The notes under the pieces were generated by a model that ran no database searches, was not told where the DNA came from, and saw only the letters and a program-made list of their open reading frames with translations. From Gautieria morchelliformis (lineage: Eukaryota; Basidiomycota; Agaricomycetes; Gomphales; Gomphaceae), in assembly GCA_015179125.1 (NCBI GenBank), contig WHVA01000069.1, positions 243,398 to 307,397 on the forward strand: a DNA stretch of 64,000 bases. The letters are read 5' to 3'. The position numbers and the translations under genes are program-made. Below, piece after piece: positions 1,553 to 63,298 of the stretch (position 1 is its first letter; every line of letters starts with the position of its first letter).

Positions 1553-2446
1553 TTATTTGCCAGTTCTCCCCCTCGAGGCGAGAAGCTGACGCAGGGCTGT
1601 TGTCAAAGTGGACGTTGTGTTCCACTGTGACAGATTTCTTTTCAGGCCAGTAAATTCAGGAACCTTACTCCTTTCATCAACCCCTATCCAGCGGCCTTCA
1701 GATACTCGACCGCCGAGCTTGTCCCCCCCTTCGGTGCGTACCCACACTCTTTCCCCCCATTCACGAACGTGCTTAAGGTTTGGTTTATCTCTGAAAGCAG
1801 CTTCGTGAGGAGTTTTACCATCGACTGCTTTAGTCGTGGTACGGTTCATCAGCCAGACAACATGCCGAGCCGCCTCACCCCATAGGAACTTTGGAAGCCC
1901 ACTCGCATGGAGCAGGGCTCGTACACGTTCAACTATCGTGCGGTTGCGACGTTCTGCCACGCCGTTTTGCTGGGGTGTGTCATGCACGGTAAGTTTCTGT
2001 GTGGTTCCTTTTGACTTCAAATGAACTGTGAATTCTTTTCCCAGATATTCACCACCTCTGTCCGAGTGGAGCGTTTTGACACGAGCCATCAGCTGCGTGT
2101 TACACCACGACTCATATTCCTTGTAGGCACTAAATGCCTCGTCTTTGGAGCGCAGCAGATAGAGGTGAGTTAAACACGTCATATCATCCGTAAACGTGAT
2201 ATAGTAACGTTTCCCGGCTTTTGTGGTAACTGGAGCTGGTCCCCATAGATCGCTGTGGACTTCTTGTCCAAAGGCCATGGCTCTCGTGCCATCCCTGATC
2301 TTTGGGAGCGGTTTCCGTGTGGCTTTTGCATATACACAGGATTCACAAAAAAAGGGGTCGCCTGACGGTAAAGTTTCAAGCTTCACTCCAGTTACAAAGC
2401 CTTTTGTAACTAATCTCCTGGCTATTTCAGGAGAAATATGACCCAT
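1553..2446 (-). pseudogene. copia A integrase
   Basis: A 297-codon open frame with copia integrase hallmarks: the end of the HHCC zinc region (MGHISPE..., then C-E-S-C), the first catalytic Asp in SDLWGP, the second in TLHSDRGGEYLG, and the Glu in QNGVAERRNRT. It begins directly after a TGA stop at the position where relatives have Trp (His-Arg-Trp-Met-Gly-His), which implies a point nonsense mutation splitting the polyprotein. The C-terminal 35 residues are out of frame because of an indel near 1665-1680. Confidence 0.88.
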
Positions 2447-4004
2447 TCATCGATGGAATTTGTCCAGGGTAAGCACATCCTCGGCTGAGTTCGCTGTTTC
2501 CTGCTCATGTGAAACGCGGTAGAGGCCATGTCCAGTTTTTAGGACCGTGCCAACAAGCTGATCGTCTCGATCCCATATGACACATTTGCCATCTGCAAAT
2601 GATACGGTGAAACCAGCATCGTCAAGCCGTCCGATTGACACAAGAGGTATACCCGACATCAGGTGAGTACAAAACCTCGGTTAGATTAAGCTGAGATGTC
2701 GTAGCTCCATTAGGTACGTCAATCCTCATCTCACCCGTCCCGACTGCGCTGAAATTCTTTCTGTTTGCAGCTCGGAAGGATTTTGGCGGTATGGGGGTAT
2801 AACTTGTTACTGCGTCTCGGTATGGCGTTATGTGTCTTGTGCATCCGGAGTCGTAGACTTCGGTCTGAGGTGAGTTTTCCGCCGCGCTGTTGACCTCTGC
2901 GCATACTGCATGCGCATCCTCCTGATCAACGCTGACAAGTGAACAGGTATCACTTTCGTCAGCTATGGGCAACTCCTCGCTCTTGCGATCAGTTTCTAGG
3001 TCATCACCGACTTCAGAAAACCAGTCGCCTGCACAGTCCTCATCCGAGTCGGACTCGCAGTTCGTCAGTAGTTGGGGTAGCTCGTCATCCGAGTCCCAAT
3101 CAGCGAAGAAGGTGGCACCGTCTTCGCCATCTGATTCCACAGCCGCATTAGCAGAGCCGCCACCTCTAGGTGAGTCATGTTTCTTGTCACCAGTGGCTTT
3201 AGCAGGTTTAGGACACTTATTCTTATAGTGTCCCGTGTCGCCGCAGTTCCAGCAAGTACCCTTCGGTTTGCGCTCAAACTTCTTTCCCTTTCCATTCGCT
3301 GATACAAACATCGCTTCATCCTTTTCTTCGCCTTTTCCACTAGTGTGCCCGGGGCGACGAGACTTGTGAGCAGCGTGTCTCTCGTACTCTTCAGATACTA
3401 ACGTGATGAGCTCGTCAGGGTCTACGGTCTTGGTCGTACTGTAGAGCTTGGCGCCTGCTAGTAGGTTCGATGCGAAAGCGGAGAGGTGAGGGGGAAGGGA
3501 TTTTATGATGGTTGACCGGTAATCCTTTTCCTCGATGTCCACACCGTACGTTGCTAACTCTTCTTTCTTGACACGTAGGCCATCAAGAAATTCACGCACA
3601 TTTCCTCTGTCGGGACATCTAGACTCCATGAAGTGAGTGCGTAGGTCTGCCTGCGCAAACACCCCCTTTGATGAGAACTTGGTTACAATGAGTTCCCATC
3701 GATCCTTTAGAGACGGCTTCCCATGGACGCGGATGAGAGTGGAATCGGGAATTCGGTGAGTAAGGAGAGCTTTCGCCGTACGTTCATCTTTAACCCATTT
3801 TGTAAGGGCTTCTTCTTCGTCAGTGGTGGGCGGGGTGCTGACTGACGGCTGAGTCGTAGTGCCATCAAAGTGCCCCCACAGACCTTTTGCTTCGACAGCA
3901 TCTTGGAAGCGCATTGAAAACACGGTCCAGTTGAGACCGTTGGCTAGGAGTTTCGGGACAGAAGAGGGAAGAAGGTCGGTTGTGGTGAGGGTCGTGGTGG
4001 ACAT
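2447..4004 (-). pseudogene. copia A Gag, zinc knuckle and protease
   Basis: The minus-strand ORF from the ATG at 4004 encodes a 460-residue Gag-protease. It has a UBN2/copia-type Gag core (KLLANGLNWTVFSMRFQDAV; CPDRGNVREFLDGLR), one CCHC zinc knuckle (CWNCGDTGHYKNKC), an acidic linker and the protease motif DSGCTRHI. The frame is lost near 2650, and the next 70 codons (2659-2447, SIGRLDDAGFTVSFADGK) continue the protease-integrase linker in another frame. Gag binds element RNA and forms virus-like particles; the protease would cut the polyprotein. The indel makes this copy defective. Confidence 0.88.
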
Positions 4005-4053
4005 TGTAGAGCGGGAGCAGCGGGGAATGAGCTAGAGAATGTGCTAGTGGGAT

Positions 4054-4069
4054 GCGGGGCCCAATAACC
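4054..4069 (-). promoter_or_regulatory. primer-binding site of copia A (initiator tRNA anticodon-arm type)
   Basis: Immediately inside the LTR the minus strand reads GGTTATTGGGCCCCGC. The anticodon arm of eukaryotic initiator tRNA-Met contains GGGCCCATAACC, whose complement is GGTTATGGGCCC; the site here matches with one extra T. Priming by the 5' half of tRNA-iMet is established for Drosophila copia and Ty5-like elements. Confidence 0.7.
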
Positions 4070-4352
4070 TGTAATAATAAGTGGACTATGCGAGTATTCT
4101 ATACAAGCGCATAAGTAAAATGAACAAGAGAAATATACCGAATATCTTACCTCAGTAGTTGCGCAAGTGCAAAGTACTGAGGAAGAAGGGCTTCTAGCTA
4201 CCTACTTTATAGTAAAGAAGAACAATGGAATCTAAACTACAATAAGCACATAGGACAATAAAGAGTGGAACAATGAAACTGCGCATATATGTCACAATGG
4301 GGTGACACGGGGTGACGCGGTTTGCCCCTGGCTTACGCGTTCTCCTCCTACA
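4070..4352 (-). repeat. copia A 5' LTR (283 bp)
   Basis: On the minus strand it begins TGTAGGAGGAGA and ends TTATTATTACA, so it has TG...CA ends with a TGTA/TACA inverted terminus. A TATAAAG box lies in the middle. A diverged partial relative is at 47932-48174 on the plus strand. The 3' partner LTR is outside the window, so no target duplication can be checked. Confidence 0.8.
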
Positions 4353-4640
4353 AAAGTCATATGACATACCATCCTGATCAGAGTAGGCCTTGAGATTCTT
4401 ATTCTCCGGCTCCTGTGCCTCCTTGGTCATGTCAATGCCGGTAGATAACTCAAGCTCCTGATGATCTGGGGAAGAGACATGATGTGCATTAGCCTGACAA
4501 TCTGGATCGAAATTTAGAGTGTTCTTTCCGACATGACAAGATTTGGCCAGCTCTAGAGCTTCAGCGTCCGTTTCCAAGTGCCGTTTGATGATCCGGGTAT
4601 GCTGCCAAGGTAGGTCACTGTCTTTACACAGTGAGCATGG

Positions 4641-16025: not shown

Positions 16026-18590
16026 ATGGCCACCACAGACAAGAAACGAAAGCGGGCTGTACTGGCTACTGAGGATGTCTTTCCTCTTGCTGTCAACCTA
16101 GACACGCTTGATGATGAGCACGACCTATCCGACTCGGAAGAGGACAATGAAGTGCTTGCTTTTCCAAGTCTCAACATACGGTCTGACAGTGAGGACGAGG
16201 ATGAAGAGGAGGAAGTGGACGAGGAGGATGTCACAGACGAGGGGGAAGAGGGCGGTAATTCCTCTGATGTAGACCAAGAGTTCTCCGTTTTTCCAAAGCC
16301 CAAGACTGTCATCTCCGGCATTACTGGCCAGCCCAAACGGGAGTACCCCCAATAGAACCTGACTATGACACGGATTCCTCGACTGAAGATGTATGTATAT
16401 TGGTCAAGCCCCTTCTTCGTGCCCCTTCATATCCAACTTCTCTTACAGGCTCCCAATCGTGTAGGCAATATTCCAATGCACTGGTATGACGACCTGCCGC
16501 ATGTAGGTTACGACGTCAATGGAAAAAAGGTTCTCCGTCCAGCAAGGGGGGATGAACTTGACAAGTTTCTTGAGACAGAGGAAGACCCTTTTTCATGGTT
16601 GGAAGTCTGCAGTTGCATCACTCTTATTATTGACTTCACCTCAGGACAAATGCCCTCGACCGTAATACCCAGTCCGACAAACCTCTCACCGTCGAAGAGC
16701 TGGATATCATCCGTCGCTTGCGCGAAAATGAAATTCCTGATCCCGATTTTGATCCCTATGAGGTGTTCCTTAAGGACGAAAAGCCTGAAGTCATGCCCCT
16801 TAGCGGCGCTCCACAGCCTAAGCGAAGATGGGTCCCCAGTAAGTGGGAGAAACAAAAGGTATGCTGTATTTTGGTCTTTAGATTGTATGTTTCTTTACCT
16901 GTCGCCCTCGCACAGGTCATGAAAATCGTTCGGGCTATTCGTCAAGGACGTATATTGCCTGCCAAGCCAAAATCTACCACTGGCATGCGCCAGTTTTATT
17001 CACTGTGGTCGACCCCAACAGATTCTTTAGCACCGGCGCCACTAGCTGCGCCCAAAACTCGCTTACCCACACATGCCGAGTCTTACAATCCGCCTGCAGA
17101 ATATCTTCCAGACCCCAATGCCCCGCTTGAAAAGGATGAGGACGATAAGTCGCTCACTCCGAAATCCTGCTCTGCTCTTCGTCTCGTTCCCGCTTACGAT
17201 CGTTTCATTAATGAGCGATTTGATCGTTTACTCGATCTTTATCTGGCACCCCGAGTTCAGCGGCGCCGCCTCCCACCAGGTGTCACAAAGGCAGATGATC
17301 TCATCCCACAACTTCCTGATCCTAAAACGCTTCGCCCTTTCCCAACTTACCGTGCGCTATGTCATTCACATCATGCTCGTGTCAGGGCTGTCAGTGTCAG
17401 CCCAGGTGGAGAGTGGGTTGTAAGTGCAGACGACGTAGGTGAGGTAAAATTATGGGAGATGCTCGTTGGCAAGGAGATCAAAACGTGGCATATGGAGGGC
17501 AAAGTCAGCGCTATAGATTGGTGCCCGAGGAAGGACGTTGCCTTCTTTATTGTCGGGATGTGAGTAGATGCAGCTCCTGAATTCCGGCTATTAGACTCAG
17601 TTATAGCTTCACAGCGATGAGAGCTTACACGCGTTCACTCCACCCTCCCTTCACCCTACCGTGGAAGCTGCTACACTTGCTCTCCTATCCCCGTCAACAC
17701 TCCCACCTACGCCTTCGACGCCTTCACCTATTGCATGGACCTCATCTTCCAGAATCTCAAATGACGGCCCTGTGTTGACTATTCAGTTGCCACCTTCGTC
17801 TGGTCTGCCGAAACAAATTACATGGCACCGTCGCGGCGACTACTTCGCTTCCGTGTGTAAGGCTATTCCGCAGATCACGTCTCCTCTTGCTCATGTCAAA
17901 CAGCTGGTAATGAGAGCCAAGGCTCAGTGTGGATACATCAGCTCTCAAAGCGACATTCCCAAGCGCCATTCCGCAAGATCAAAGGGGCGGTTCAACGAGT
18001 GCTTTTCCATCCCCAAAAGCCGTATTTTTTTGTGGCGGTATGTGGCAGTTTCAATGAAACATACCTCAACTATCATACATTGTTCAGACTCAACGCTATG
18101 TTCGAATATACGACCTCGCAGCGCAGCAGTTGCTGAGGACCCTCATGCCCGGCCTCAAGTGGATCTCGTCAATGGATGTCCATCCATCGGGAGGCCACCT
18201 TATTGTTGGCGGGTACGATCGCAAGCTGTCCTGGTTTGACCTCGATTTGAGCGAGAAGCCTTACAAAGTATTACGGTATGTACGCGTTGTTCGTGGCCTC
18301 CTCAGACTATTCAGCTGAATATGTCAAGCTATCATACCCGCGCACTACGCTCGCTGGTGTTCCACCCGACATACCCGCTATTCGCATCCACGTCTGACGA
18401 CGGCACTGTTCAGGTTTTCCATGCACGAGTGTTCAGTGATCTTCTCACAGATCCTTTAATAGTACCACTCAAGATTTTACGGGGGCATACTATAAGCGAT
18501 GGGCTTGGCGTGCTTGAGGCGCGATGGTGTCCGGGAGCACCTTGGCTAGTTACAGCAGGTGCAGATGGTGTTGTGGCTGTTTGGCAATGA
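16026..18590 (+). CDS. ERB1: ribosome biogenesis protein ERB1 (BOP1), multi-exon, with a probable 1-nt frameshift
   Basis: Exons at 16026-16390, 16449-16597, 16645-16858, 16916-about 17560, then further WD-repeat exons to the stop at 18588-18590. The product has an acidic N-terminus ([16 protein letters not shown]), the BOP1NT domain ([34 protein letters not shown]) and a C-terminal WD40 propeller ([53 protein letters not shown]). ERB1 acts in the nucleolar PeBoW complex (with NOP7 and YTM1) in 27S pre-rRNA processing for the 60S subunit. Near 16346 a run of five C puts the acidic N-terminus out of frame with the following [13 protein letters not shown]; six C would restore it. This is a sequence error or an inactivating indel. 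Confidence 0.9.
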
Positions 18591-18844
18591 CCAATCGTCA
18601 GGAGTCTTATGTGACGATGATTAGATACGGTAAATTGGTTGATGGAGTGACTTATCCATCTTTGCTTCGCAAACTAACATGACAATTCAGGCCCATTGCC
18701 ACGAGTGTTACCCTTAACATTACAGTTTGTTAAACCCTTTACATAAAATTCAGTCTGATCACAGTTAAGTTTTAACAGAAATATTATGTAGCTTTGAATT
18801 CAAAATTTGCGCAACCCACACAATCTGCCATAGCCTGAGACTTG
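18591..18844. other. convergent intergenic spacer between ERB1 and SND2
   Basis: About 254 bases separating two stop codons that face each other. AT-rich, no gene; expected to contain both 3' UTRs and polyadenylation signals. Confidence 0.4.
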
Positions 18845-19515
18845 TTATCTGTTCGTGGCCACTGAACGAACACGAATGTCTCCTTTTTCTTGTCTTTTTC
18901 GCAACTTATCTTGTCTCTTGCTGGCTGGCTCATGCGCCTGACCCTCCTTGGCATCCCCAGCACCCAATGCAGAGGACCGCCCAAGCAACATCGGGGAGAT
19001 AAAGGAGGTCCATGCCCTGTAACCTGCATACAAAGGTATCTACCAGCAGTGTTGAATTTTGATGCATCATGTGGAGTCTCGAAATTACTGACGACAAGGT
19101 ATAGCCACCAGACCCACTCCCCGAAGAGGCTGCTGCCAACCTGGCACGCCCATGTAACATATATTATGTCCCACGACCAATCTGTGAGGCCTGCCTGGTT
19201 CAAGTCGTCGCCGGGGGAGAGTAGCATGCCAGATGCATCGCGTCGGGGTGTGCCCGCGCGAACGAGAAAAGAATATAGGAACATACTGGGAGCCAAGGTG
19301 GTGACATATACCATAATAGAGAATATGGAAGAGAAGGTGTATCGTCGTAAAAACAATCGAATGGTGATAGAGAGGCCCATACAAACGATCATGCCTACTC
19401 GAAGGTTACGAATGGCCTTCTCGTTTTGAGCTGCGATTCGCTTGGCAGATGCGTTGGCCTGTGCATCGGAAGACATTTACATAGACTTAGGACTTATGAT
19501 AGGGTGACTCACCAT
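18845..19515 (-). CDS. SND2: SND2/TMEM208 family ER membrane protein, 3 exons
   Basis: Preferred model on the minus strand: a first coding exon consisting of the ATG alone (19515-19513), then 19458-19096 and 19039-18845, giving 186 residues starting MANASAKRIAAQNEKAI. An alternative start at 19476 inside the first intron would add a few residues. The protein has hydrophobic segments (LRVGMIVCMGLSITIRLFL; FSIMVYVTTLAPSMFLYSFLV; IIYVTWACQVGSSLFGEWVWW) and a basic tail (KRQDKLRKRQEKGDIRVR), the TMEM208 plan. SND2 acts in the SRP-independent ER targeting pathway. It is head-to-head with ELP2. Confidence 0.85.
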
Positions 19516-30374: not shown

Positions 30375-31110
30375 TGTAAGGTTGTTGGCTTATTACTTGT
30401 GTTATCACAAGGTAGTAGAACTTGATCAAACTATGGTGATTCTAATACGACGTAGTGACGGTTACAGGTAAAGTTAAGCTTGTAGAGGACAGGAATTATA
30501 GGCAGTAGGTATGGACTTGTTATTCAAAAGAATAGACTAGAAATCAATTCACTCTCTCAGTGAATTTAGTGGTCACTATAAATATATTATACACTACCTA
30601 GAAATCAATTCACTACAGAGGATTTCTAGGTCAATAAATGCAAAGACTACTAGACTAATTTACTTGCCTCTCTCAGTGAATTTAGTGGTCACTGAGAGAG
30701 GGGGAAATGTGTTCCACTGCGCATGTACTACTACCCGGCCCTTTAGCGCCCAAGAGCTCGCGCGTCGAAGTCATTTCAGACTCCGCTGGGTGCAGCCGCT
30801 TGTGAAAGTAGGAATAACAAGATGAAATAGAAAAATAAAGAATGAGTGGAAAATTTCGAAAATAACCAGAGAAATGGATGCATAATACAAGAACAATGTG
30901 AGAAGAAATTGGAAGGCCACACAACAAATTGGATATATTATGCTTGATTTTGGTGCAGGAGCATAAATGCACCCAACAAAGCTGGGGAATCCCGGGGGAT
31001 TCCCACGCAAGAACTATACAGTGGGTCCGTGAGGACCCACTGGCACTATGTAAGCTACCAGCTATTATGTGTTGCCGCGAGGCAACACAGGTAAATACCT
31101 ATATTTACAC
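30375..31110 (-). repeat. gypsy H 3' LTR, interrupted by copia B solo LTR
   Basis: Minus-strand reading starts TGTAAATATAGG right after the polypurine tract and ends CCTTACA; about 233 bp once the 498-bp copia LTR and its duplication are removed. It contains hairpins such as GTGTTGCC...GGCAACAC (about 31067-31086) and GTGGGTCC...GGACCCAC. A relative at 45745-45931 lacks the former, so hairpins differ between copies. Confidence 0.75.
30481..30978 (-). repeat. copia B solo LTR (498 bp) with AAGCT target duplication
   Basis: Minus-strand start TGTTGGGTGCATTTATGC and end CTCTACA; homologous to the copia B 5' LTR at 37151-37580. Perfect 5-bp duplication AAGCT (30476-30480 and 30979-30983). It contains an internal duplication around CTCAGTGAATTTAGTGG that makes it longer than the other copy. 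Confidence 0.88.
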
Positions 31111-31131
31111 CCTCCCCCACTATAGAGAACT

Positions 31132-33149
31132 CTAGTCTCCATAGATGTCGTCATCAAGGTCTTTATCCTTGGGTGACGGAGTGTTGTCCATTGGGACGTC
31201 CTCGTATGGAGCCAGCAGGGGCCGGGGGTCCACGTGCATCGCATCCGCATGAGCGGATGTAGATGGGCCAGGTCCGGCTTGGGGTTGGTACAGACCCATT
31301 TCAAGAGATGGGTCGAGTCCCATCTCCTGGATGAAGGCGGCCTCCGCAGCCTGATCCGGCTGCGGATCCGGGGAGCGGGACACAAGTAGCTCATTGTTGA
31401 GCTGTTCCGAAGTGCTCGCGGCCGCTTTCTCGCGGGCGCGCTGGGACAACTTCAGTCCCTGTATGCCACCGCTGCCCTGTGTGTGCAGCGGTGTTCGTGA
31501 CTTCCTTGTCATGAAGTCGCTGGAAGTATCCCTCTATCCAAGGGATACGTTCATGGTTTATGCCGGCATGAAGGGCTAGCATGACGTGAGCTCCTTCAGC
31601 GGGATCTCGTGCGCGAGTCTGTTCCTGAGCGGGAACATCCCAGTGATCGAAGCCCGCAGGGTGTCTGCGGCAGGCGACGGGATCGTGATGTTGGTCACGA
31701 GGTCGAGCCATTGGCCTGGCATACCAAACAAGTCACTTAAACGTGACTTGAGAGGGGATTGTGGCTTGCCCTTGGGGGCCAGGATCCGTACCCACATCCA
31801 GATATCGATAACTGTTGTGTTGAGCCCACCCTCCACATCATCGCAGATGGCGGGAGGGACTCCTTTCGCGTTGGACCGCCACCCATTAAGCACTGTGATG
31901 ATATCGTCAGGTGTGCCATCCAAAATGTTGATATAGTTTGGACGGGGCTTATGGGTTCCCTCCTCGCGGAGGCGCCAGAACGCCGTGTTCATCTCCGGTG
32001 TGCGCTGGTTGACTGGAGTGTCCCTGGCGAGCACGAGGAGGTCTAAAAACCTCTGCTTGCTGATCGGGCAGACGTGGTACCACTCAGCAACACGAGGGAC
32101 CGATCTGCCTAGGGGCTGCGGCAAGCGGCCCGTCATGGAGATAGGTGGATCTCCATGTCTCAACGGCTCCCCTTCCCCCAGGTAGCGTGGTATAACTCCC
32201 GACCCCGGCGGTGGTAGCACAATGTGAGGCCCAATATACTGGGCTTGCACTGTGGCTAGTGCCTGTTGTAGTCGGGGGTCGTCGACGTTGTGCGCCGATG
32301 ATTCTGCTAGATACGTGTCCTTGATGCATTCTAGTTCATCCACCAGTCCGTTTTCCATGACTGGCGGTGGGAGACATTTTCTGCGTTTCCATTTGGAAAC
32401 GCGTACAGGCCGATCTGGTTCATAATTGTCCCAGATCAACATGTCCGACAGCCACCCGGCCAGGATGTTGGAGTCATACGACTCGAGCGGCGCCGGTGCA
32501 GTCGACAGCGTGGTGACTGTCGCTGTCCTGGATGCCGCTCGGGCGTCCATGACGGGTGCCGTGCTGAGCTCCGTGATGCGGTTGGCCAGCGCCGGACCTG
32601 CTGAGAGGGGCGTGGCCCCTGGGGCTAGTGTTGCCCCTTTTTTGTGTGATGGCAATGGAGCCATCGGGCGGGAGGATGGACCGGCCACAGGCTGAGCCTT
32701 TGGCCGTGGCAGGGCAGGACATGTCCGCCTGGCTCCTTTGAGTTGTTGTTTCAACTCGTGGATTTTGTCGTCTCTGCGTGAGACTCGCTCACGCTCGGAG
32801 ATGAGGGTCTGCTTGAGGCGCTCAATCTCTGCCTGAGCGTCCTCAACTGCCATCCACCTGGCCCCTTTGGTGATCCAGGGCGAGGCGTCCTCAACGGCGT
32901 AGCAATGTCATCGTCTAGCATCCGTATCTTACCGGAGTTGGATGACTCCGCTAGGTGTGTTGCGTATGACTCGCAACATTCGCATTTATCTGAGTGAATA
33001 ATAGCGAGGCCGTCGTTCCACGACGCTATCTCCCAGTTTTTGGGAGCTAGTTTCTTCGAAAATATCGTGGCGGCCCCCTTCTTTGGGGCCGCTGGTTGTG
33101 GCATGGACGTTGATGTCTCAACGTCCATGGCTTCTTTGATGCCATCCAT
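31132..33149 (-). pseudogene. extra ORF downstream of pol in gypsy H (env position), unknown function, frameshifted
   Basis: Three adjoining minus-strand frames (33149-32751, 32853-31576, 31512-31132) read like one protein of about 600 residues broken by two indels. Features: a Cys-rich motif (HSDKCECCESYATHLAES), a basic/Ser-rich linker, a predicted coiled coil (AQAEIERLKQTLISERERV), a Pro-rich linker and a compact C-terminal region (NYINILDGTPDDIITVLNGW, VDIWMWVRILAPKGK). No signal peptide or membrane segment is seen, so it is not an obvious envelope protein. The C-terminal region resembles a recurrent family of Agaricomycete hypothetical proteins that I recall but cannot verify here. Confidence 0.6.
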
Positions 33150-33270
33150 CTTCGTTAGAAGATGGTGGTGGTCTCTTCTTAAGAAGTGAAGCGCCCTTGG
33201 AGAGATTCGAGGTGAAAATTTATAGTGCCGTGGCTTGGCGCGTCACGTGATCACACGTGACTGATGCGTC

Positions 33271-33981
33271 CTAATGCCGTTTAGGCAGGTCGCGTGGTTT
33301 GGCCACGCCTTGAAGCTCTAGATAGGTATTTAGGGCTTCGAGGTCCTTACACGATGACATGGGCTCCCATGTCACGTCTCCTAGAGTCCATCTGACTTGG
33401 AACTCCAGGTCCTTCGAGTTTATCCATTGATGGGATAAGATCTCATCGACGAGCCACTCTTCCTCGTCATTCACCCCAAAGTCATAGAATGACTTTGCTT
33501 CTTGACGAGGGAACAGATCATTGTTGTTCGCTTCATACCCTTGTATGAGGCTGGTATGAAACGTCAGCGTGATGTGCCGGTTTGTCAATTCCTCCGGTAA
33601 CTTGAGGGTTACTGTTGAGGTGTCATTCTGGGCCTCCTTCACACAATATGGTCCTATATATCGCGGTATTAGCTTCCTAGCCCTCCCTTTCGGCAGGGTC
33701 AGGTTTTGGGTTGACAGGTATACGCGGTCTCCCACTGCATACATGTCCCCTTCGCGACATTTCTTATTAGCTTGAAACGTCTGCATCACGCAATGCTCTA
33801 TGATGGCATCGTGTACTGCCATTAGGTTCCATCGAGCCTGATGTGCGAATTTTGTCACTCCCTTGAAGGGAGTGTCCATGGCCATTGGCAGGTCGATCTG
33901 TGGCATATATCCGTGGTTCAGCTCGAAGGGCGCAAACCCTGTCGTCGAGCTGACGTTGCTGTTTAAAGCAACCTTAACCAT
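33271..33981 (-). CDS. gypsy H integrase C-terminal part with chromodomain
   Basis: 236 codons. The N-terminal half is the end of a gypsy integrase (SSTTGFAPFELNHGYMP, then the GPY/F-type region RKLIPRYIGPYCVKE). The C-terminal 60 residues form a chromodomain (EEWLVDEILSHQW...LEFQVRWTLGDVTWEPM). Chromodomains direct chromoviral integration to heterochromatin. It is separated from the catalytic core by the 22-bp minisatellite, which destroys the frame. Confidence 0.85.
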   Translation of the reverse strand: MVKVALNSNVSSTTGFAPFELNHGYMPQIDLPMAMDTPFKGVTKFAHQARWNLMAVHDAIIEHCVMQTFQANKKCREGDMYAVGDRVYLSTQNLTLPKGRARKLIPRYIGPYCVKEAQNDTSTVTLKLPEELTNRHITLTFHTSLIQGYEANNNDLFPRQEAKSFYDFGVNDEEEWLVDEILSHQWINSKDLEFQVRWTLGDVTWEPMSSCKDLEALNTYLELQGVAKPRDLPKRH

Positions 33982-34000
33982 TGGGCACTTTCTGGCCCAG

Positions 34001-34087
34001 TCCTTCTGGTCGTCTTTGACGGTCCTTCTGGTCGTCTTTGACGGTCCTTCTGGTCGTCTTTGACGGTCCTTCTGGTCGTCTTTGACG
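34001..34087. repeat. 22-bp minisatellite, about 4 copies, inside gypsy H integrase
   Basis: Unit TCCTTCTGGTCGTCTTTGAC plus GG repeated about four times without visible variation. Twenty-two is not a multiple of three, and the array separates the integrase core from its C-terminus. Confidence 0.9.
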
Positions 34088-34089
34088 AC

Positions 34090-34998
34090 TTATCGAAGAA
34101 TCTGACCTATCGAACAGTTTGCCCGTTCGGTCACGCCATCCGTTTGAGGATGGAATGCAGTGGACATGAGGAGTTTCGTCCCCATGAGCCATTGGAGCTC
34201 ACGCCAGAATATGGATGTGAACTTCGGGTCTCGATCCGAGACTATGGAGTCCGGGACTCCATGAAGTCTTACGACCTCCTTCAGGAATAGCCAGGCTATT
34301 CCTTTAGCTGTCACGCTCGTCGTTGTTGGGACGAGGTGTATGTGAGATGTGAGTCTATCTATGATTACCATGAGGTAATCACAGTCATTCGACTTGGGCA
34401 ATGGGCCCATGAAGTTGATCCTGATAGATTGCCATGGTCTATCGGGTACAGGCAGACTATGTAGTAGCCCTGCAGGCCGTTGGGTGCCTGTCTTGGTAGT
34501 CTGACACTTCGTGCACGAAGTGCAGAATGCCTCAATGTCCAAGGCCATACTGGGCCACCAGTATGTTCTTCAAATGTAATTCAAAGTTTTCAGTTGACCG
34601 TAATGGCCAATTGTCTGGTGGGCGTGATCTATTATGATCTCGACCAGCCTCCTTCCCCTTTGAAATACATTCCGGGGGATGGCTATGACATCCCTCTTGA
34701 GCTGATTCTTTGTCCAAATCAGCCCATCCCGGATGCCGAATCTTGGATGTGCATCCGGGTTTGCCATGATCTTTGCGAACATGGGCTCCTTATGGTAGGA
34801 GTTGCGTAGGACCTTTGGCAGGTCCAAGTTCTCTTCTACGCTTACACGTAGGGGAGCTCCGTCATTGCCTGCGGCAATGACACGGATGTCATTGTCGTTG
34901 TCGTTGTCTGGCAACAACGTGTCGTGGCAAGGTTCCTTGACAGAGCCTTCATTCATAGCTGCTGCTTCTAATGTTTGCGGCTCTGTTTTTTTTTCCAC
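34090..34998 (-). pseudogene. gypsy H integrase zinc-binding domain and catalytic core
   Basis: Minus-strand 34998-34570 ends in the H-H half of the HHCC zinc site (IIDHAHQTIGHYGQLKTL). The next frame 34548-34090 starts with CTSCTKC and continues with the catalytic core: IRINFMGPLPKS, HGVPDSIVSDRDPKFTS and AFHPQTDGVTERAN, supplying D, D and E. A frame break lies between 34570 and 34548. Confidence 0.85.
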
Positions 34999-35137
34999 GA
35001 GGCGAGTTGATCACCTCGTAGCTGCTGTATGCAGCTCCATGTATCAGTCGGTGAGCATTAGCTCACCATCCGGGTCTATTCGCGCATCTGCGTTGACAAA
35101 GACATGATCCGGGTGCTTCTCATCACCCGTATCGCTC

Positions 35138-36631
35138 TCATAGTAGCAGGATAAGCAGTCCGCTACCTTTGTTCTCAACGCTGTCAACATGGACGGTGTT
35201 GTAATTGAAGTGGGATAAAAACTCCCACCACCGGACCTGTCTATTGGACAGGTTCTTTTGGGTCTTGAAGTACTCGAGACCCTTGTGGTCCATGACTAGG
35301 GTGAAATTTCGCCCTAGGAGTTTGTCCTCCCACTTCATGAGGGCTTCGAGCACGGCGATAGTTTTGTGCTCGTGTGTTCTGTAGTGTTGCTGTGCAACAC
35401 TGAACTTCTTTGACAAGAAGCCAGCTGGCCGACAGGTTCTCCAGTCTGGTCCCTGGCTGTATATGGCACTGACACCAGACTTTGAACCGTCAGTGATGAC
35501 CCATATCCGGTCCGCATTCCGTGCGTCGATGGGGCGCAGGATTGGGGCCTTGCAGGCCAGTGCCCTTATGCTGTGGAAGCATTTGTCCAGCAACGGCGTC
35601 CATTCAAACGGACGGTTGTTGCGCACACATCCTGATAAGGGTGTGGTGTATGCGCTGATGTCTGGCATGTAGTGTGCCAGGTACTGGACAAGGCCAAGGA
35701 ATCTCTGCACGTCGTTAAACGTGGGGGGCCTCCTCCACTTGCGGATGCATTGCATCTTGTCTCCATCCGCATGAACTCCTTGGCCATCTATGATGTGGCC
35801 AAGGCACTCCATTCTTTCCGAATAGAGGTCAACCTTCTTTTTACTTAAGAAGAGATGGCTGCTTCGTAGTCTGTCGAAGAATATACAGAGATGTTCCTCG
35901 TGCTCTTGTATCGAGTGCCAGAAGATAAAAATGTCATCCATGTAGACATGGACGAAGCGACCTATGCAGTCGGGGAATATCGACGTCATGAGACGTTGAA
36001 ATGTCGATGGGGCATTGCAGTCCCCCATCTGTATCACTTGGCTCCAGAACGTGCCAAGGATCATCACAAAGTCTGTCTTTGGGACGTCTTCAGGATGAAC
36101 ACGGATTTGCTCGTATGCCTCTGACATATCAAGTTTCGTCCTGTATTTACAGCCAGCGACATCGCTCATGATAACATCCTGATCTGGGAAGGGTGTCACG
36201 TCCTTCACCGTGTTCTCATTCTGCTGTCGCAGGTCGAAGATGGTACATAGCGTACCATTTTTCTTCGGTACACACAGCATTGGCACTGCTTGATGGGCCA
36301 CTACTGGTATCCACCACTTCGCAGTGGTGTATCGTTCTAGCTTTACGGACAATTCCTCATGGAAGTGTTTGGGACACTTGGGTAGTCTATACCACATGCG
36401 TTTGTTGGGATCAATAAGATTGATCTCGTGATTCACCTCCCATAAGGGAGGAAGCTCCAACGGAATACCGCCGATGAGGTCAGCAATCTTGTCCATCCAT
36501 TCCTCGTGCAAGCGAGGGATATCATCTTCTGTGAGGACGATGGTTGCGGTTTGGGCAGCCATCAAGCACCGTGTACATCTGTTTGGACCCCCAGCGCTCG
36601 GCGGCTTTTTCCTTTTTTCTAGCGCTTTCAT
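35138..36631 (-). CDS. gypsy H reverse transcriptase and RNase H
   Basis: 497 codons in one open frame. RT blocks are VAHQAVPMLCVPKKNGTLCT, FDLRQQNENT, KYRTKLDMSEAYEQIRVHPED, QMGDCNAPSTFQRLM, VYMDDIFIF (the catalytic YxDD) and LFLSKKKVDL. The RNase H part has ITDGSKSGVSAIYSQG, HYRTHEHKTIAVLEAL and LVMDHKGLEYFKTQK. The frame is open in spite of very many hairpins in the DNA; one (TCCATG...CATGGA, 35937-35952) overlaps the YMDD codons. Upstream protease and downstream integrase are in other frames. Confidence 0.9.
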   Translation of the reverse strand: MKALEKRKKPPSAGGPNRCTRCLMAAQTATIVLTEDDIPRLHEEWMDKIADLIGGIPLELPPLWEVNHEINLIDPNKRMWYRLPKCPKHFHEELSVKLERYTTAKWWIPVVAHQAVPMLCVPKKNGTLCTIFDLRQQNENTVKDVTPFPDQDVIMSDVAGCKYRTKLDMSEAYEQIRVHPEDVPKTDFVMILGTFWSQVIQMGDCNAPSTFQRLMTSIFPDCIGRFVHVYMDDIFIFWHSIQEHEEHLCIFFDRLRSSHLFLSKKKVDLYSERMECLGHIIDGQGVHADGDKMQCIRKWRRPPTFNDVQRFLGLVQYLAHYMPDISAYTTPLSGCVRNNRPFEWTPLLDKCFHSIRALACKAPILRPIDARNADRIWVITDGSKSGVSAIYSQGPDWRTCRPAGFLSKKFSVAQQHYRTHEHKTIAVLEALMKWEDKLLGRNFTLVMDHKGLEYFKTQKNLSNRQVRWWEFLSHFNYNTVHVDSVENKGSGLLILLL

Positions 36632-36706
36632 TGTGAGATGACAGCGTCTCTCCCTACGAGTGTAGGGAGAGGGTGAGGACGAGTCACGAGACTCGTCCTC
36701 CTGGCT

Positions 36707-37150
36707 TCAATTGGCCAGGAGGGGCGTGGGCCCTGAGGTGATTCTATTCACCTTTGGGTCCGCGCCATTCTTTGATGACTTTTCGTCGTCGAGGCTTACT
36801 TTTCCTGTGGGGATGATTTCATTCCCCAAGATTGTCCCTGGACTGGCAAAGTCCAGGGTCACTCCTAGTTTCCTCAGGAACGAAGTCCCCAAGATAGCGT
36901 CGTAGTATTTGATGTTCACCATGTCGAAGTATTCTTCGACTGTTTCGCAACCAAATCTAATGGTCGTGTTCATCCCATAGTTGATCATTGACTGACTACC
37001 GATGCACACCAATTGTAGGGCAATTGGCTGTTCCAAGGCAAATGTTTTTATGCCAGTGGCACACGTGAATTCAGGGGATAGCAGTACCCCTTCACTTCCA
37101 CTGTCTAGTAGACAGTGGGCCTTTGTGCCACCGATTTCCCAGTACCCTAA
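36707..37150 (-). CDS. gypsy H aspartic protease
   Basis: Retropepsin-like domain: LDSGSEGVLLSPEF carries the catalytic Asp-Ser-Gly, followed by a flap region and YDAILGTSFLRKLGVTLDFA. The apparent Met codon of this frame lies inside the adjacent copia B LTR, so the true protein extended further upstream into Gag, which is missing. Confidence 0.8.
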   Translation of the reverse strand, partial: LGYWEIGGTKAHCLLDSGSEGVLLSPEFTCATGIKTFALEQPIALQLVCIGSQSMINYGMNTTIRFGCETVEEYFDMVNIKYYDAILGTSFLRKLGVTLDFASPGTILGNEIIPTGKVSLDDEKSSKNGADPKVNRITSGPTPLLAN

Positions 37151-37580
37151 GGTTGGGTGCATTTATGCTCCTGCACCAAAATCAAGCATAATGTATTCGA
37201 TTTATTGTATGGTGTTTCAATCTCTTCTCACATTGGTCTTGTACCATGCATTCACTTCTCTGATTATTTTCGAAAATTTCCAGTCACTCCCTATCTCTCC
37301 ATTTCATTTTGTTATCTCTATTTTCACAGGTGGCTGCACCCAGCGGAGTTTGAAATGACTTCGACGCGCGAGCTCTTGAGTGCTAAAGGGCCGGGTGCAC
37401 GTATATGCCTTCTGAGACAGGATAGTGCTCCTCTCTCAGTGACAATAAATTCACTGAGAGAGGCAAGTAGTATTCTTTGTATTTTCATAGCATGTTGACT
37501 GAAAATCATGTAGTGAATTTGATTCTAGCTTTCTAAGAGCTCTACCTAACCTTCCCTGCCATAACCCTGAGTTGCTAACA
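37151..37580 (+). repeat. copia B 5' LTR (about 430 bp)
   Basis: Homologous to the solo LTR at 30481-30978. It starts GGTTGGGTGCATTTATG (family TG changed to GG) and ends GCTAACA. It abuts the gypsy H protease on the left. The partner 3' LTR is missing because the element is truncated near 40305. Confidence 0.8.
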
Positions 37581-45744: not shown

Positions 45745-45931
45745 TGTAAAGGAGTAAACTTAGGGCCTTGTGGGTATCACAAGAGCAGCAGAGATCGACC
45801 AAGCTGTGGGATTCTGATACTACGTAGTGACGGTTACAAGGTAAGTTTTTGCTGGGGAACTGCCGGGCAGTTCCCACGCACTACTGTACAGTGGGGTCTT
45901 GTGGACCCCCCCCTTCTGAATCCACTTCTTT
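45745..45931 (-). repeat. gypsy H-type LTR (187 bp) with adjoining polypurine tract
   Basis: Shares TACGTAGTGACGGTTAC, GCTGGGGAA and the TTTACA/TGTAAA ends with the gypsy H LTR. The minus strand next to it reads GGGGAGGG, like the polypurine tract of gypsy H. Contains the hairpin GGAACTGCC.GGCAGTTCC. Confidence 0.75.
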
Positions 45932-46780
45932 ACACCCTCCCCTTCTAGAAGGAACCCACCGGGTGAGCCAAAAGAAGCGCCCCTTTGACATTGAGAAAGG
46001 GATGGGTGTGTGGACCAGGTCATTCTGATGTACCTCAGAATAACCACAGATCTGATGCCTCAGATCTGACATGAATGGCATGATGTCATGACATGGCATC
46101 ATGGCAGATGTGTTGGCATAGTACCAACACATCTGTTCTGGTGTTCATCATTCTGAACACCGGTGGTTGTGCCGGCTTCGCCGGCACTCCCCGGTTGTAG
46201 TGGGTGGTTGGTTGGTTTGGGGGCATGGTTCTTCCCCCTCTGAACCGAAACCCACGGTTGAGAACAACTTGAATGCTCTCAAACCCACAGACAGGTGATG
46301 TCTGTGGGGAACTGAACAGCCAATGATCTAGGAATCATTGGTGCCTAACTGCAAAGGATAGCAGTTATGCAGCCATAGGACCCAGCAGGGCCCTATGCAA
46401 GGAATAACCATGTGGTCAATAATTGACCGCTTTGTGACATGATGTCACCCATAGGACTCGGAGGAGCCCTACGCAAGGAAATTACCGAAGCGGTCAATAC
46501 TTGACCGCTTCATGGCCAAATGGGCCAGCGGCTGCATACAGCCGCTGGGCATTGTGTCCATGGACCTGGACACAACGGATGTGCATTTGCGTGCACGCCA
46601 GGCATGTGATGCAGGCAGAGGCACAGCTTTCTGACGATCTGTTGGATCATCTTGCAGCTGTCCGTTGGGGCAGCCGGTTGCTCCTGAGGTTTGTTCCTGA
46701 ACCTTACGTCCTGTTCGACCGGGACGGCTGGCGGCGGCATTCGCTGCTTGTCCCACTCCTTTCGGCGCGGGTCTTCCACG
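45932..46780. repeat. hairpin-dense non-coding block adjoining the gypsy H-type LTR
   Basis: Successive perfect inverted repeats: CAGATGTGTTGG...CCAACACATCTG (46105-46135, 12-bp stem), GTGCCGGC...GCCGGCAC (46169-46187), GAAGCGGTCAA...TTGACCGCTTC (46487-46511), CAGCGGCTG...CAGCCGCTG (46526-46547) and more. No convincing coding frame. Probably the 3' region of a second gypsy H-like element. Confidence 0.7.
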
Positions 46781-47931
46781 TCGTGACCGCATTCGTTAGC
46801 TGCGGACTGTCGCGCACTAATGGCGGTGGCTCCGCAGGGGGCCGGCAATGCGGCGGTTGCGACATATGCCGCAACTGGGAGCTTCTGGGGACCTTTGGTG
46901 GGTCCCCAGGTGCGGATGCACGCCCCTTGGCGCGTGCCGCACCCTCCCTCCTTGACAGGAGAGAGCCTGGCGGCCGGGGCCGCCTCTGGGCCCGCGCGCG
47001 AACGCGGACGCGGCGGTGGGCCGGCCATGGCACGCGGCAGGGAGCCCCAGCAGCCTGAGTGTCTGCTGGGGACCCGGTGCGCCGCGTGGCACCCGCCGCT
47101 GACGGGGGCGGCCCTGCATGCGGGCGCGAGCGAGGGCGGGCGGAGCGGCGCTGCGGGCGCGGCTTTCGCGGCGCCCGGCGGCCTATGGGGAACCCCTGAG
47201 GGTCCCAAGCAGTGGGGGCACATCCCACAGGACGTGCCCCACCGTTCCCGCTCGCTGGGAATGAGCGGGGTGGACCGGGCGGCTCCAGAGGCCGCGCGCG
47301 AGTGTGGACGCGGCGGTGGGCCGGTCCTGTCGCGCGCGGAGGTGCCCCAGCAGCATGTGTATGCACTGGGGACCTGGGGCACCGCGTGGGGCCCGCCTTG
47401 GACGGGGGCGGGTCTGCAGGTGCCCGCGAGCGCGGGCAGAGGGGCGCGCGGCGTGCGCAGCTTACGCGGGGCCTGGCACGCTCTAGGGAGCGTGCACCAC
47501 CTCTCCTGCTCGCTGGGAGCGAGCAGGGTGGCCGGGACGGTGCCTGGGGCCGCGCGCGACCGCGGATGACGCTGCGCGGCGTGCGTGATCCCAGGCCGAC
47601 TCTGGGGGCCTCTTGGGGGCCCCCAGAGGTGGATGCACGCTCTGAGGAGTGTGCACCACAGTTCCCGCTCGCTGGGAGCGAGCAGGGCGGTCCCTGGGGC
47701 CGCGGTCGAGGGTGGATGGCCGTGGGCGCCGGGCACGGCGTTCGTGACGTCTGGCCGGTTCTGGGGGCCTCTGGAGGGCCCCCAGAGGTGGATGCACGCT
47801 CCTTGGAGTGTGCACCACCGTTCCCGCTCGCTGGGAGCGAGCAGGGCGGCCGGGGTGGTACCTGGGGCGCGCGGATGACGCTGCGCGCTGGCGGCGGCTT
47901 ACGCGGGTTCCCAGTCGTCCTGGGGGGCTCT
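46781..47931. repeat. GC-rich degenerate tandem repeat array with embedded hairpins
   Basis: At least five diverged units of roughly 150-300 bp share CTGGGGGCC...CCCCCAG, GTGGATGCACGC, GAGTGTGCACCACC and CCCGCTCGCTGGGAGCGAGC. Clear unit cores are near 46900, 47220, 47470, 47610 and 47770. GC content is far above the surroundings. Long frames on both strands exist only because stops are rare in this composition. Confidence 0.75.
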
Positions 47932-48174
47932 TGTAGGAGTGAACGCGTAAGCACAATAGCAAACCGTGTCACCCCATTGTGACAAAGCATGCGCAGCTTC
48001 ATTGTTCTATATTTTCCTTTGTCCTGATGTCCCTATTGTAGTTTAATTCTCATTGTTCTCAAGAACTATAAGTAGCTAAGTATCTTCTACACTCTGCCTC
48101 AGTACTTTGCATCGAAGCATCTACTGAGGTAAGAAACTCATTATTAGTCTCGCATCTATCTTAGCTCACCTATA
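47932..48174 (+). repeat. partial copia A-type LTR, cut by copia D LTR
   Basis: Begins TGTAGGAGTGAACGCGTAAGC and follows the copia A LTR (4070-4352) through CTCAGTACTTTGCA and CTACTGAGGTAAGA. It ends at 48174, where the copia D LTR begins with TGTTGTGATAAAC. Confidence 0.75.
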
Positions 48175-62429: not shown

Positions 62430-62647
62430 TAATAATGAGAGAAAAAAAACATCACCTGGTAACAAAAACCAGGAGAAAAAAGCTTGCTGAAACAAGGGCA
62501 GAGCTACAAGAAACATTGGGAGTCAGCCCAACGGATAGGACAATATGGAAAATGCTAAATTCACCTACAATAAGAAGAAACATTGTAGTTCCTATGGAAA
62601 TTGCTCCACAGAAGGCTAAGAGTCGGAGTATACTGGGGAAACATACC

Positions 62648-63063
62648 TGTCAGGGGACACCCTGTTTTCCATTTCCAGTTCCGACTCCATTTCCGAAGAC
62701 GCTTCCGATTCCGATTCCATCTCCGCCTCCGCTCTCGGAAATGATTCCGCTTCTGGGAGAACTTCCACCAGTTCTGTTCGCCTTCCCAGTTCCACTCCAA
62801 TTTCCGAGTTCCACCCTCGGAACAGTGTCGGAAATCAAGCGACTCGCGTAATAGGTGACATCAAGGGTCGATCAAGGGTCAGGGAGGTGCAGGGTTGATG
62901 GCGGGTGCCAAGTGTTGTCCCTGGCTGCGCAGCGTAGTATAATACGGGCTCGCTGACATTGGGGGTCCTTAGACTTTTCTCTTTGGATTTCCCCTTGTCA
63001 GGTGAGAATCCCCTCTCTTGTATGCTCTGTTCATTTATACAGACTTTGGATTTCCCCTTGTCA
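62648..63063 (+). repeat. gypsy-C 5' LTR (416 bp)
   Basis: Starts TGTCAGGGGACACC and ends ATTTCCCCTTGTCA, an imperfect inverted terminus. Contains a TTCCGATTCC-rich low-complexity stretch (62660-62820) and a 20-bp direct repeat TTTGGATTTCCCCTTGTCAG at about 62980 and 63045. A relative is at 28629-29989 on the minus strand. Confidence 0.75.
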
Positions 63064-63068
63064 GTTGT

Positions 63069-63082
63069 GTGGTAGTGTGATC
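63069..63082 (+). promoter_or_regulatory. putative gypsy-C primer-binding site
   Basis: TGGTAGTGTGATC a few bases inside the LTR; begins TGG as expected for pairing with a tRNA CCA end. The same word follows the other gypsy-C LTR (28616-28604, minus). Confidence 0.55.
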
Positions 63083-63298
63083 TCCACAACTAGCCAGGGT
63101 TGCCCTTACAGCAGAAAAGTCTCTCCCATAGAGGACCGGCGGTCGTACTGCGTGTCGCAGCCGCCATAGGTGCGTTCGGAATCGGAGACAGCGACTCGGA
63201 GATCGCAACCTCTTCCGCACACACAGCGTACGACAGCCCTTCTTCTTACGTCGAGCTCCCAACCCCGGAAATCCCGTCCCACATTTCTCCTTCCGACA

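What the first reader, a model, noticed from the sequence alone, without database searches (positions are those of the whole stretch)
31060..37150. A Ty3/gypsy element whose coding DNA is saturated with short perfect hairpins
Reading 31.1-37.15 kb I find more than 40 perfect inverted repeats with 6-10-bp arms and short loops, one every few dozen bases, through protease, RT/RNase H, integrase, chromodomain and the extra ORF. Examples: 32383-32402 GCGTTTCC/GGAAACGC; 33102-33128 CATGGACGTT/AACGTCCATG; 33242-33261 GTCACGTG/CACGTGAC; 33355-33374 TGACATGG/CCATGTCA; 33478-33496 AAAGTCAT/ATGACTTT nested in CCTCGTCA/TGACGAGG; 34244-34262 ATGGAGTCC/GGACTCCAT; 34284-34302 GGAATAGCC/GGCTATTCC; 34861-34881 GTCATTGCC/GGCAATGAC; 35050-35067 GGTGAGC/GCTCACC; 36836-36858 CCCTGGACT/AGTCCAGGG; 37009-37027 CCAATTG/CAATTGG; 37098-37118 CCACTGTCT/AGACAGTGG. 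One overlaps the codons of the RT catalytic YMDD (35937-35952), yet RT stays in frame with conserved motifs. Copia, LINE and host genes in the window lack this density by eye. Either the element's RNA is selected for dense local structure (packaging, protection from silencing or nuclease) or its replication keeps making templated palindromes, for example by RT strand switching. I know of no described family with this trait.
Basis: partly seen in the sequence, partly recalled or inferred. Interest (0 to 1): 0.88.

Follow-up and report, generated by a model that had tools for sequence, protein, structure and literature searches.

The report
Retrotransposon family saturated with perfect hairpins
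A lineage of fungal jumping genes, and a second repeat related to it, carry several times more short perfect hairpins than chance allows, and neither their proteins nor their base composition explains it; the likeliest cause is a fold-back habit of the enzyme that copies them, or a need for their RNA to stay tightly folded.

Summary
Window 31060-37150 holds 54 perfect inverted repeats (arm >=7, loop <=20) against 5.9 in dinucleotide shuffles, and the RT frame 13 against 1.9 in codon-preserving shuffles. The window lies in a 122-Mb genome with at least 86 RT matches of this Ty3/gypsy lineage. All 30 copies fetched (the window's own and 29 others) show the trait; 30 loci of other, about 30%-identical Ty3-type elements of the genome do not as a set. 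Folding strength (sense MFED 22-29%) is in the range of six ssRNA phages. A second repeat, 45745-47940, sharing its first 190 bp with this lineage's 5' part and without a Pfam match, is denser still. Ty3 stems are mostly perfect (80 perfect, 39 with one mismatch), those of ssRNA phages mostly not (28, 66). Arms change together somewhat more than chance. I favour fold-back copying during reverse transcription (0.45) over selection for RNA structure (0.38). Neither is proven: copy-specific rewritten arms are not above chance, and a 5'-arm bias in the core did not repeat elsewhere.

The parts
36707..37162 (-). protease frame of the Ty3/gypsy element
   Evidence: PF13650 1.3e-4 (23.1 bits, cut-off 24.3) and PF13975 2.1e-4 (22.3, cut-off 28.2), both under cut-off
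35138..36631 (-). reverse transcriptase and RNase H, open 497-aa frame; 13 perfect inverted repeats of arm >=7 in the stop-to-stop frame
   Evidence: PF00078 2.1e-21, PF17917 1e-24; codon-preserving shuffles give 1.9
34090..34548 (-). integrase core fragment
   Evidence: PF00665 7.7e-7, 29.7 bits under cut-off 32.6
33271..33981 (-). integrase C-terminal SH3 and weak chromodomain
   Evidence: PF24626 5.6e-10 over cut-off; PF00385 0.016, 15.6 bits under cut-off 25.1
31123..33149 (-). extra ORF downstream of integrase, here three open frames; one 558-aa protein in Gautieria morchelliformis
   Evidence: tblastn of P0121: 82%, 73% and 80% identity over three pieces; no Pfam match for the pieces or for P0121
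31110..31118 (-). polypurine-tract-like GGGGGAGGG just before the presumed 3' LTR start
   Evidence: read from the sequence; function inferred
30979..31109 (-). presumed start of the 3' LTR (TGTAAATA...), cut by a copia LTR-and-leader fragment; contains perfect hairpins
   Evidence: sequence; the copia fragment 30475-30978 has 38 further matches at 98-100% among the 40 places scored, a capped list
31060..37150 (.). hairpin-saturated stretch: 54 perfect inverted repeats arm >=7
   Evidence: 5.9 +- 2.2 expected from 40 shuffles
45745..47940 (+). second hairpin-saturated repeat, 28 non-overlapping hairpins (12.8 per kb), sharing its first 190 bp with the 5' part of a Ty3 copy of this lineage; no Pfam match in its four long open frames
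62646..63111 (-). fragment matching sequence near the 5' end (before gag or protease) of copies of this lineage
   Evidence: L025 99.1% over 465 bp, L033 91.5% over 484 bp, L032 and L017 98.5% over 203 bp

Best explanation
A Ty3/gypsy (Tf2-1/chromovirus-like) lineage in what is probably a basidiomycete genome has its body, coding and other, filled with short perfect hairpins (arms 7-12, loops mainly 0-13 with a peak at 4). SHOWN: the excess, its near-restriction to this lineage and a sequence-sharing second repeat, its presence in all three subfamilies sampled, hairpin turnover with some coordinated change of the two arms, and the dominance of perfect over one-mismatch stems. INFERRED: during reverse transcription the nascent strand often folds back on itself and copies the second arm from the first, so chance imperfect palindromes become perfect and mutated ones are re-perfected, while purifying selection on the proteins removes copies that damage them. 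The RT, or its slow passage through structured RNA, would be the driver. I claim that it works like template-switch mutation, not that its defining multi-base footprint was found.
For: Stem quality: in five Ty3 stretches (two of subfamily A, two of B, one of C; related, not independent) 80 perfect stems (2.6 by shuffling) against 39 with one internal mismatch (about 6); in 11 ssRNA phages, the control for selected RNA structure, 28 (5.1) against 66 (about 14). A weak preference acting on each pair alone should leave mostly near-perfect stems; whole-arm copying gives perfect ones (inference). Loops mainly 0-13, peak 4 (a few longer lengths such as 19 and 23 are also high). No GNRA/UNCG enrichment seen (3 and 0 of 37 tetraloops). 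Both members of a pair differ in 78 cases against 48 expected, and 51-71 against 46-66 when the partner is slid by 1-3 (my sums over the 9 between-subfamily comparisons of the 15, which overlap). WC-to-WC double changes 4 of 303 vs 76 of 15137 controls, p=0.07. In the core, mismatches closed on a branch lie more in the 5' arm (32 vs 15, p=0.02), the arm that fold-back in minus-strand synthesis would rewrite; unpolarised one-sided p=0.0008 for arms >=7. G.T is not favoured over A.C in oriented copies (arm 8: 319 vs 751, shuffles 46 and 68). The second repeat is denser than the element (12.8 vs 4.8-8.6 hairpins per kb).
Against: Copy-specific multi-base changes that make a palindrome: 4 of 393 clusters against about 3.0 at random, while 4 destroyed one; one of the 4 lies in copia-LTR-like sequence. 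These are mostly terminal, probably post-insertion changes, so power is low. Hairpins with two or more closings are not clearly one-armed: 7 of 11 vs 5.1 (arms >=7), 9 of 14 vs 6.4 (>=6), 4 of 7 vs 3.5 (>=8). One-mismatch stems are not closed clearly faster than control pairs: 7 of 67 vs about 5.5. The 5'-arm bias is absent in the downstream region, gag and the second family and not significant for polarised arms >=8 (18 vs 13). The wobble test is weak: at arm 10 G.T is as enriched as A.C (74 vs 3.0; 136 vs 6.4), and in phages unique stems give 16 and 17, sliding windows 115 and 81. MFED is higher in sense than antisense in 4 of 4 Ty3 representatives.
Confidence: 0.45

Rival explanations
1. 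Selection for genome-scale ordered RNA structure: the element's RNA is kept densely folded (packaging, nuclease or RNAi shielding, or preventing annealing with its copy), by weak selection on many replaceable hairpins.
For: Sense MFED 22-29% in four Ty3 representatives against 17-33% in six of the 11 ssRNA phages fetched, same method, with sense above antisense in 4 of 4 and 6 of 6; about 15% in sarbecoviruses and 7.5-10.7% in HCV as reported in PMC7642675 (passages), where structure is also consecutive stem-loops with poorly conserved positions. Mean folding z -2.0 to -3.0 vs -0.4 to 0.2 in three other Ty3-type loci. Paired sites open less than control pairs: 36 of 303 vs 2660 of 15137. At third positions arms of ancestral hairpins change in 20 of 108, loops in 9 of 15, other sites in 291 of 1118. 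Hairpins use the two codon phases that leave most wobble freedom (205 and 109 vs 56; related frames, no shuffled baseline).
Against: Stems are far more perfect than in RNA phages. No G.T preference on the sense strand at arm 8; A.C openings are not rarer than G.T openings (12 vs 10). Folding z is nearly equal on both strands (L010 -2.57 and -2.52). In the second repeat the strand taken as sense folds less than the other (MFED 19.8 vs 28.7%; its true sense is uncertain). Stable tetraloop motifs not enriched. Other Ty3-type loci of the same genome lack the trait.
Confidence: 0.38
2. Selection on the minus-strand cDNA or on double-stranded DNA (cruciform or hairpin in DNA), not on RNA.
For: A.C on the sense strand (G.T on the minus strand) is the commoner transition mismatch: 751 vs 319 at arm 8; z on both strands nearly equal.
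Against: A.A exceeds T.T likewise (373 vs 79, shuffles 43 and 18), so an A-rich, T-poor composition may explain the skew; I know of no DNA-level function that needs it.
Confidence: 0.07
3. Chance, composition, codon usage, low complexity or an assembly artefact.
For: None beyond the mild excess in some copia stretches and a few other loci.
Against: Dinucleotide and codon shuffles; 30 of 30 copies, on 29 contigs; 30 other Ty3-type loci near background.
Confidence: 0.02
4. Template switching by the host's DNA replication in the integrated copies.
For: Template switching in DNA replication is argued to create and help maintain hairpins (PMC8794818, abstract and discussion).
Against: Other Ty3-type loci, the LINE frame and a host frame of the same genome lack it; copy-specific changes show no excess.
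Confidence: 0.04

Closest known systems
Ty3/gypsy LTR retrotransposons of the Tf2-1/chromovirus type in basidiomycetes (e.g. the Trametes cubensis RT protein P0029)
   Same: PR-RT-RNase H-INT-SH3 order and Pfam domains; RT 56% identical over 92% to P0029
   Different: Hairpin saturation; an extra ORF after the integrase with one match among the 8000 candidates scored. Whether relatives in other fungi have the trait is unknown: only their proteins were reachable
[quoted passage not shown]
   Same: High MFED, consecutive stem-loops through coding sequence, hairpin turnover
   Different: A retroelement; stems are mostly perfect rather than mostly imperfect
Template-switch / quasipalindrome mutation
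   Same: Produces perfect arms and coordinated arm change (PMC8794818, abstract and discussion)
   Different: Described there for DNA replication; multi-base one-arm footprints were not found above chance here

Membership tests
Ty3/gypsy (Metaviridae-type) LTR retrotransposon | pol order protease, RT, RNase H, integrase | tested here: met
   Order on the - strand 37162 to 33271, protease and rve matches under cut-off; an 880-aa frame in L018 holds RT, RNase H and H2C2 over cut-off and rve under cut-off, in order
Ty3/gypsy (Metaviridae-type) LTR retrotransposon | Ty3-type gag with zinc knuckle | tested here: inconclusive
   Not found in the window copy; in L068 zf-CCHC 21.4 (cut-off 20.8), Retrotrans_gag 22.5 (under 24.1), Ty3_capsid 21.8 (under 29.1)
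Ty3/gypsy (Metaviridae-type) LTR retrotransposon | paired LTRs | tested here: inconclusive
   PPT-like run and a TG start seen at the 3' end; no intact pair shown, copies are nested with other repeats
chromovirus clade | chromodomain after the integrase | tested here: inconclusive
   PF00385 15.6 bits, cut-off 25.1; SH3_Tf2-1 over cut-off
GORS-type RNA structure | MFE well below dinucleotide-preserving shuffles through the whole sequence | tested here: met
   MFED 22-29% sense; 46-70% of 120-nt windows at z<-2 in four Ty3 stretches
GORS-type RNA structure | structure acts as RNA (wobble pairs tolerated; formed in cells) | tested here: inconclusive
   No G.T preference in Ty3 at arm 8, but the phage control shows little either in unique stems; formation in cells not testable
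template-switch (fold-back) mutation | one arm rewritten in a multi-base event | tested here: not met
   4 of 393 clusters vs about 3.0 at random, low power; one-armed 7 of 11 vs 5.1
template-switch (fold-back) mutation | perfect stems and coordinated arm change | tested here: met
   80:39 perfect to one-mismatch; 78 vs 48 double changes (9 comparisons); WC-WC doubles 2.65-fold, p=0.07

The most novel reading that the evidence does not exclude
The reverse transcriptase of this lineage has an inbuilt fold-back habit that keeps converting chance palindromes into perfect ones, so the mobile element and the second repeat that it probably mobilises have evolved, by mutation rather than for use, sequences folded as tightly as RNA phage genomes.
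Probability: 0.35. Interest if true: 0.9.

Novelty: new variant of a known kind. Interest (0 to 1): 0.74.

Why it matters
Either reading is new for LTR retrotransposons as far as my searches show. If copying makes the hairpins, a whole element's structure is set by a polymerase's error habit, and coordinated arm change, usually taken as evidence of functional RNA structure, can arise without function. If selection makes them, it is an LTR retroelement with predicted RNA structure as strong as that of MS2 or Qbeta, with other Ty3-type elements in the same host as natural controls. The many copies, three subfamilies and a related second repeat make the question directly testable.

Tried and rejected
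Rejected: chance/composition; a general property of this genome or of its Ty3-type elements (0-9 inverted repeats of arm >=7 per locus, shuffles 2.6-6.2; a few of the 30 loci are mildly raised, e.g. L045 9 vs 3.8 and, for arms >=9, 5 vs 0.2; many of these loci look like close relatives of each other); post-insertion mutation as the maker; GNRA/UNCG-driven hairpins. A 5'/3'-arm bias, first taken as strong support for minus-strand fold-back, failed in other stretches and is kept only as a hint. My first G.T/A.C test was invalid because loci were not strand-oriented; one search replaces it, and searches showed that the test separates poorly. The position of closings within stems looked uniform. 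L070 did not align as the wanted downstream piece and was dropped. L072 duplicates L071 and was not used; MFED was run on 6 of the 11 phages. The viral-contig scan found no relative by tblastn; plasmids gave one 31% match in a Wolbachia plasmid. Literature searches listed nothing whose title or abstract start describes this trait.
Full report
OBSERVATION. Every example given exists. In 31060-37150 perfect inverted repeats (loop <=20) number 109, 54, 33 and 21 for arms >=6, 7, 8 and 9, against 25.1, 5.9, 1.6 and 0.4 in 40 dinucleotide shuffles with maxima 31, 10, 4 and 2. With synonymous codons permuted (30 times), the RT frame gives 13 against 1.9 (max 4) and the extra ORF 7 against 2.0 (max 5); LINE and host frames give 1 vs 1.2 and 1 vs 1.3, copia frames 3 vs 2.3 and 6 vs 3.1. 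In the 1-kb profile the raised stretch begins in 30-31 kb and ends in 37-38 kb.

WHAT IT IS. The element lies on the minus strand: protease 37162-36707, RT/RNase H 36631-35138, integrase pieces to 34090, SH3_Tf2-1 and a weak chromodomain 33981-33271, then an extra ORF that is one 558-aa protein in Gautieria morchelliformis (P0121) and is split into three open frames here. A PPT-like GGGGGAGGG precedes a TGTAAATA start, cut at 30979 by a copia LTR-and-leader fragment with 38 further matches at 98-100% among the 40 scored. No gag was found here; a relative, L068, carries one. The copy is therefore broken. The window sits in a 122-Mb genome of 1113 contigs. The RT relatives that bear an organism name are basidiomycetes (Trametes, Pleurotus, Leucocoprinus, Meripilus, Peniophora, Tilletia; 120 of 580 hits listed, most unnamed) and the extra ORF's one hit is in Gautieria (Gomphales), so the host is probably a basidiomycete, perhaps near Gautieria (inference).

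THE TRAIT BELONGS TO THE LINEAGE. The genome search lists 86 RT matches, a lower bound. All 30 loci fetched (L001 is the window's own copy) have 18-47 inverted repeats of arm >=7 where shuffles (5 each) give 3.2-6.0. They form subfamilies A (7 copies, with the window), B (22) and C (L009, later joined by L069), 76-80% identical to each other in the RT core. Thirty loci found with the RT_RNaseH family, 28-34% identical to the window's RT, have 0-9 where shuffles give 2.6-6.2. The 5' part with gag is also enriched (L033 14 vs 1.7).

A SECOND SATURATED REPEAT. 45745-47940 holds 28 non-overlapping hairpins, 12.8 per kb. A search with 45900-47000 finds 30 places (the window's included) that match about 0.9 kb or more of it; three copies match at 91-94% over 1.5-2.2 kb. 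Its first 190 bp match the 5' part of a Ty3 copy of this lineage (L068) at 94%, and a further 184 bp match that copy inverted at 90%. Four long open frames in it have no Pfam match. It looks like a non-autonomous derivative (inference). In four aligned copies arms differ about half as much as loops and the rest (W vs L066 0.036, 0.081 and 0.081); part of that is expected because arms were chosen as perfect.

STRUCTURE. Loop lengths are in excess mainly from 0 to 13, with a peak at 4; a few longer lengths (19, 23 and some above 40) are also high, and the 30 loci are related. Arms are 7-12. Mean folding z in 120-nt windows is -2.0 to -3.0 on both strands of four Ty3 stretches, against -0.4 to 0.2 in three other Ty3-type loci, and sense -1.1, antisense -0.3 in copia. 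MFED in 350-nt windows is 22-29% sense and 15-25% antisense in four Ty3 representatives, 17-33% and 11-33% in six ssRNA phages; in the second repeat 19.8% and 28.7%. PMC7642675 gives about 15% for sarbecoviruses, 7.5-10.7% for HCV and 23.4% for a bulbul coronavirus (passages). Codon phases that leave most wobble freedom are commoner (205 and 109 vs 56; no shuffled baseline), as expected if hairpins are written mainly with synonymous changes.

MECHANISM TESTS. (a) Stem quality: perfect to one-mismatch 80:39 in five Ty3 stretches, 28:66 in 11 phages; sliding-window counts agree (104 vs 255 and 41 vs 391). (b) Wobble: oriented Ty3 loci show A.C 751 and G.T 319 at arm 8 (shuffles 68 and 46), but 136 and 74 at arm 10 (6.4 and 3.0); loci share ancestry. 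Phages show A.C 81, G.T 115 in sliding windows (shuffles 22 and 21) and 17 and 16 in unique stems, so the test separates poorly. (c) Fate of pairs on subfamily branches: paired sites open in 36 of 303 against 2660 of 15137 controls; double WC changes 4 of 303 vs 76 of 15137 (p=0.07); one-mismatch stems closed 7 of 67, about 5.5 expected from control rates. (d) Joint change of arms: over the 9 between-subfamily comparisons of the 15 (6 are within a subfamily), 78 observed vs 48 expected, and 51-71 vs 46-66 for partners slid by 1-3. (e) Polarised closings: 32 in 5' arms vs 15 in 3' arms for arms >=7 (p=0.02), 49 vs 29 for >=6 (p=0.03), 18 vs 13 for >=8 (p=0.47) (a slightly different set, 32:13, 43:27, 18:11). 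The unpolarised clustered test gives one-sided p=0.0008, 0.007 and 0.03 for arms >=7, >=6 and >=8. The downstream region, gag and the second repeat give no consistent bias. (f) Copy-specific clusters: 4 of 393 made a new palindrome, about 3.0 at random, 4 destroyed one. (g) Third-position change in ancestral hairpins: arms 20/108, loops 9/15, elsewhere 291/1118.

READING. The trait is a lineage property, not host-wide. Perfect stems outnumbering imperfect ones argues for a whole-stem process, and fold-back copying by the RT is the simplest; PMC8794818 (abstract and discussion read) argues that template switching can create and help maintain stems. Against it stand (f), the weak one-armedness, the slow closing in (c), the higher sense MFED and the unrepeated bias in (e). 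Selection for folded RNA fits the folding strength and the slower loss of pairs, and keeps 0.38. Searches of the held library listed no account of such an element; most subscription papers are not held.

Noticed in passing
45745-47940: Second hairpin-saturated repeat family with diverged 159-bp tandem units (47476-47931) and long GC-rich open frames without a Pfam match; shares its 5' end with the Ty3 lineage
   Followed up: partly
34000-34087: Perfect 4 x 22-bp tandem repeat inside the integrase region of the window copy
   Followed up: no
30475-30978 and 37152-37469; L031, L032, L068: One copia family's LTR region lies inside or directly against the Ty3 element in four of the five long stretches looked at (window, L031, L032, L068; not seen in L033); a possible insertion preference, not tested
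   Followed up: no
31123-33149: Extra ORF after the integrase with no Pfam match and a single match among the candidates scored, in Gautieria morchelliformis
   Followed up: partly
1500-4500 and 18001-19000: Mild excess of inverted repeats (9 vs 2.9 and 5 vs 1.2) in a copia-bearing stretch and in a stretch not identified
   Followed up: no
hairpins of the Ty3 lineage (window copy, L009, L032, L033): Pair orientation is skewed: 5'C-3'G 366 vs 5'G-3'C 289 (p=0.003), T-A 236 vs A-T 204 (p=0.14); unexplained
   Followed up: no
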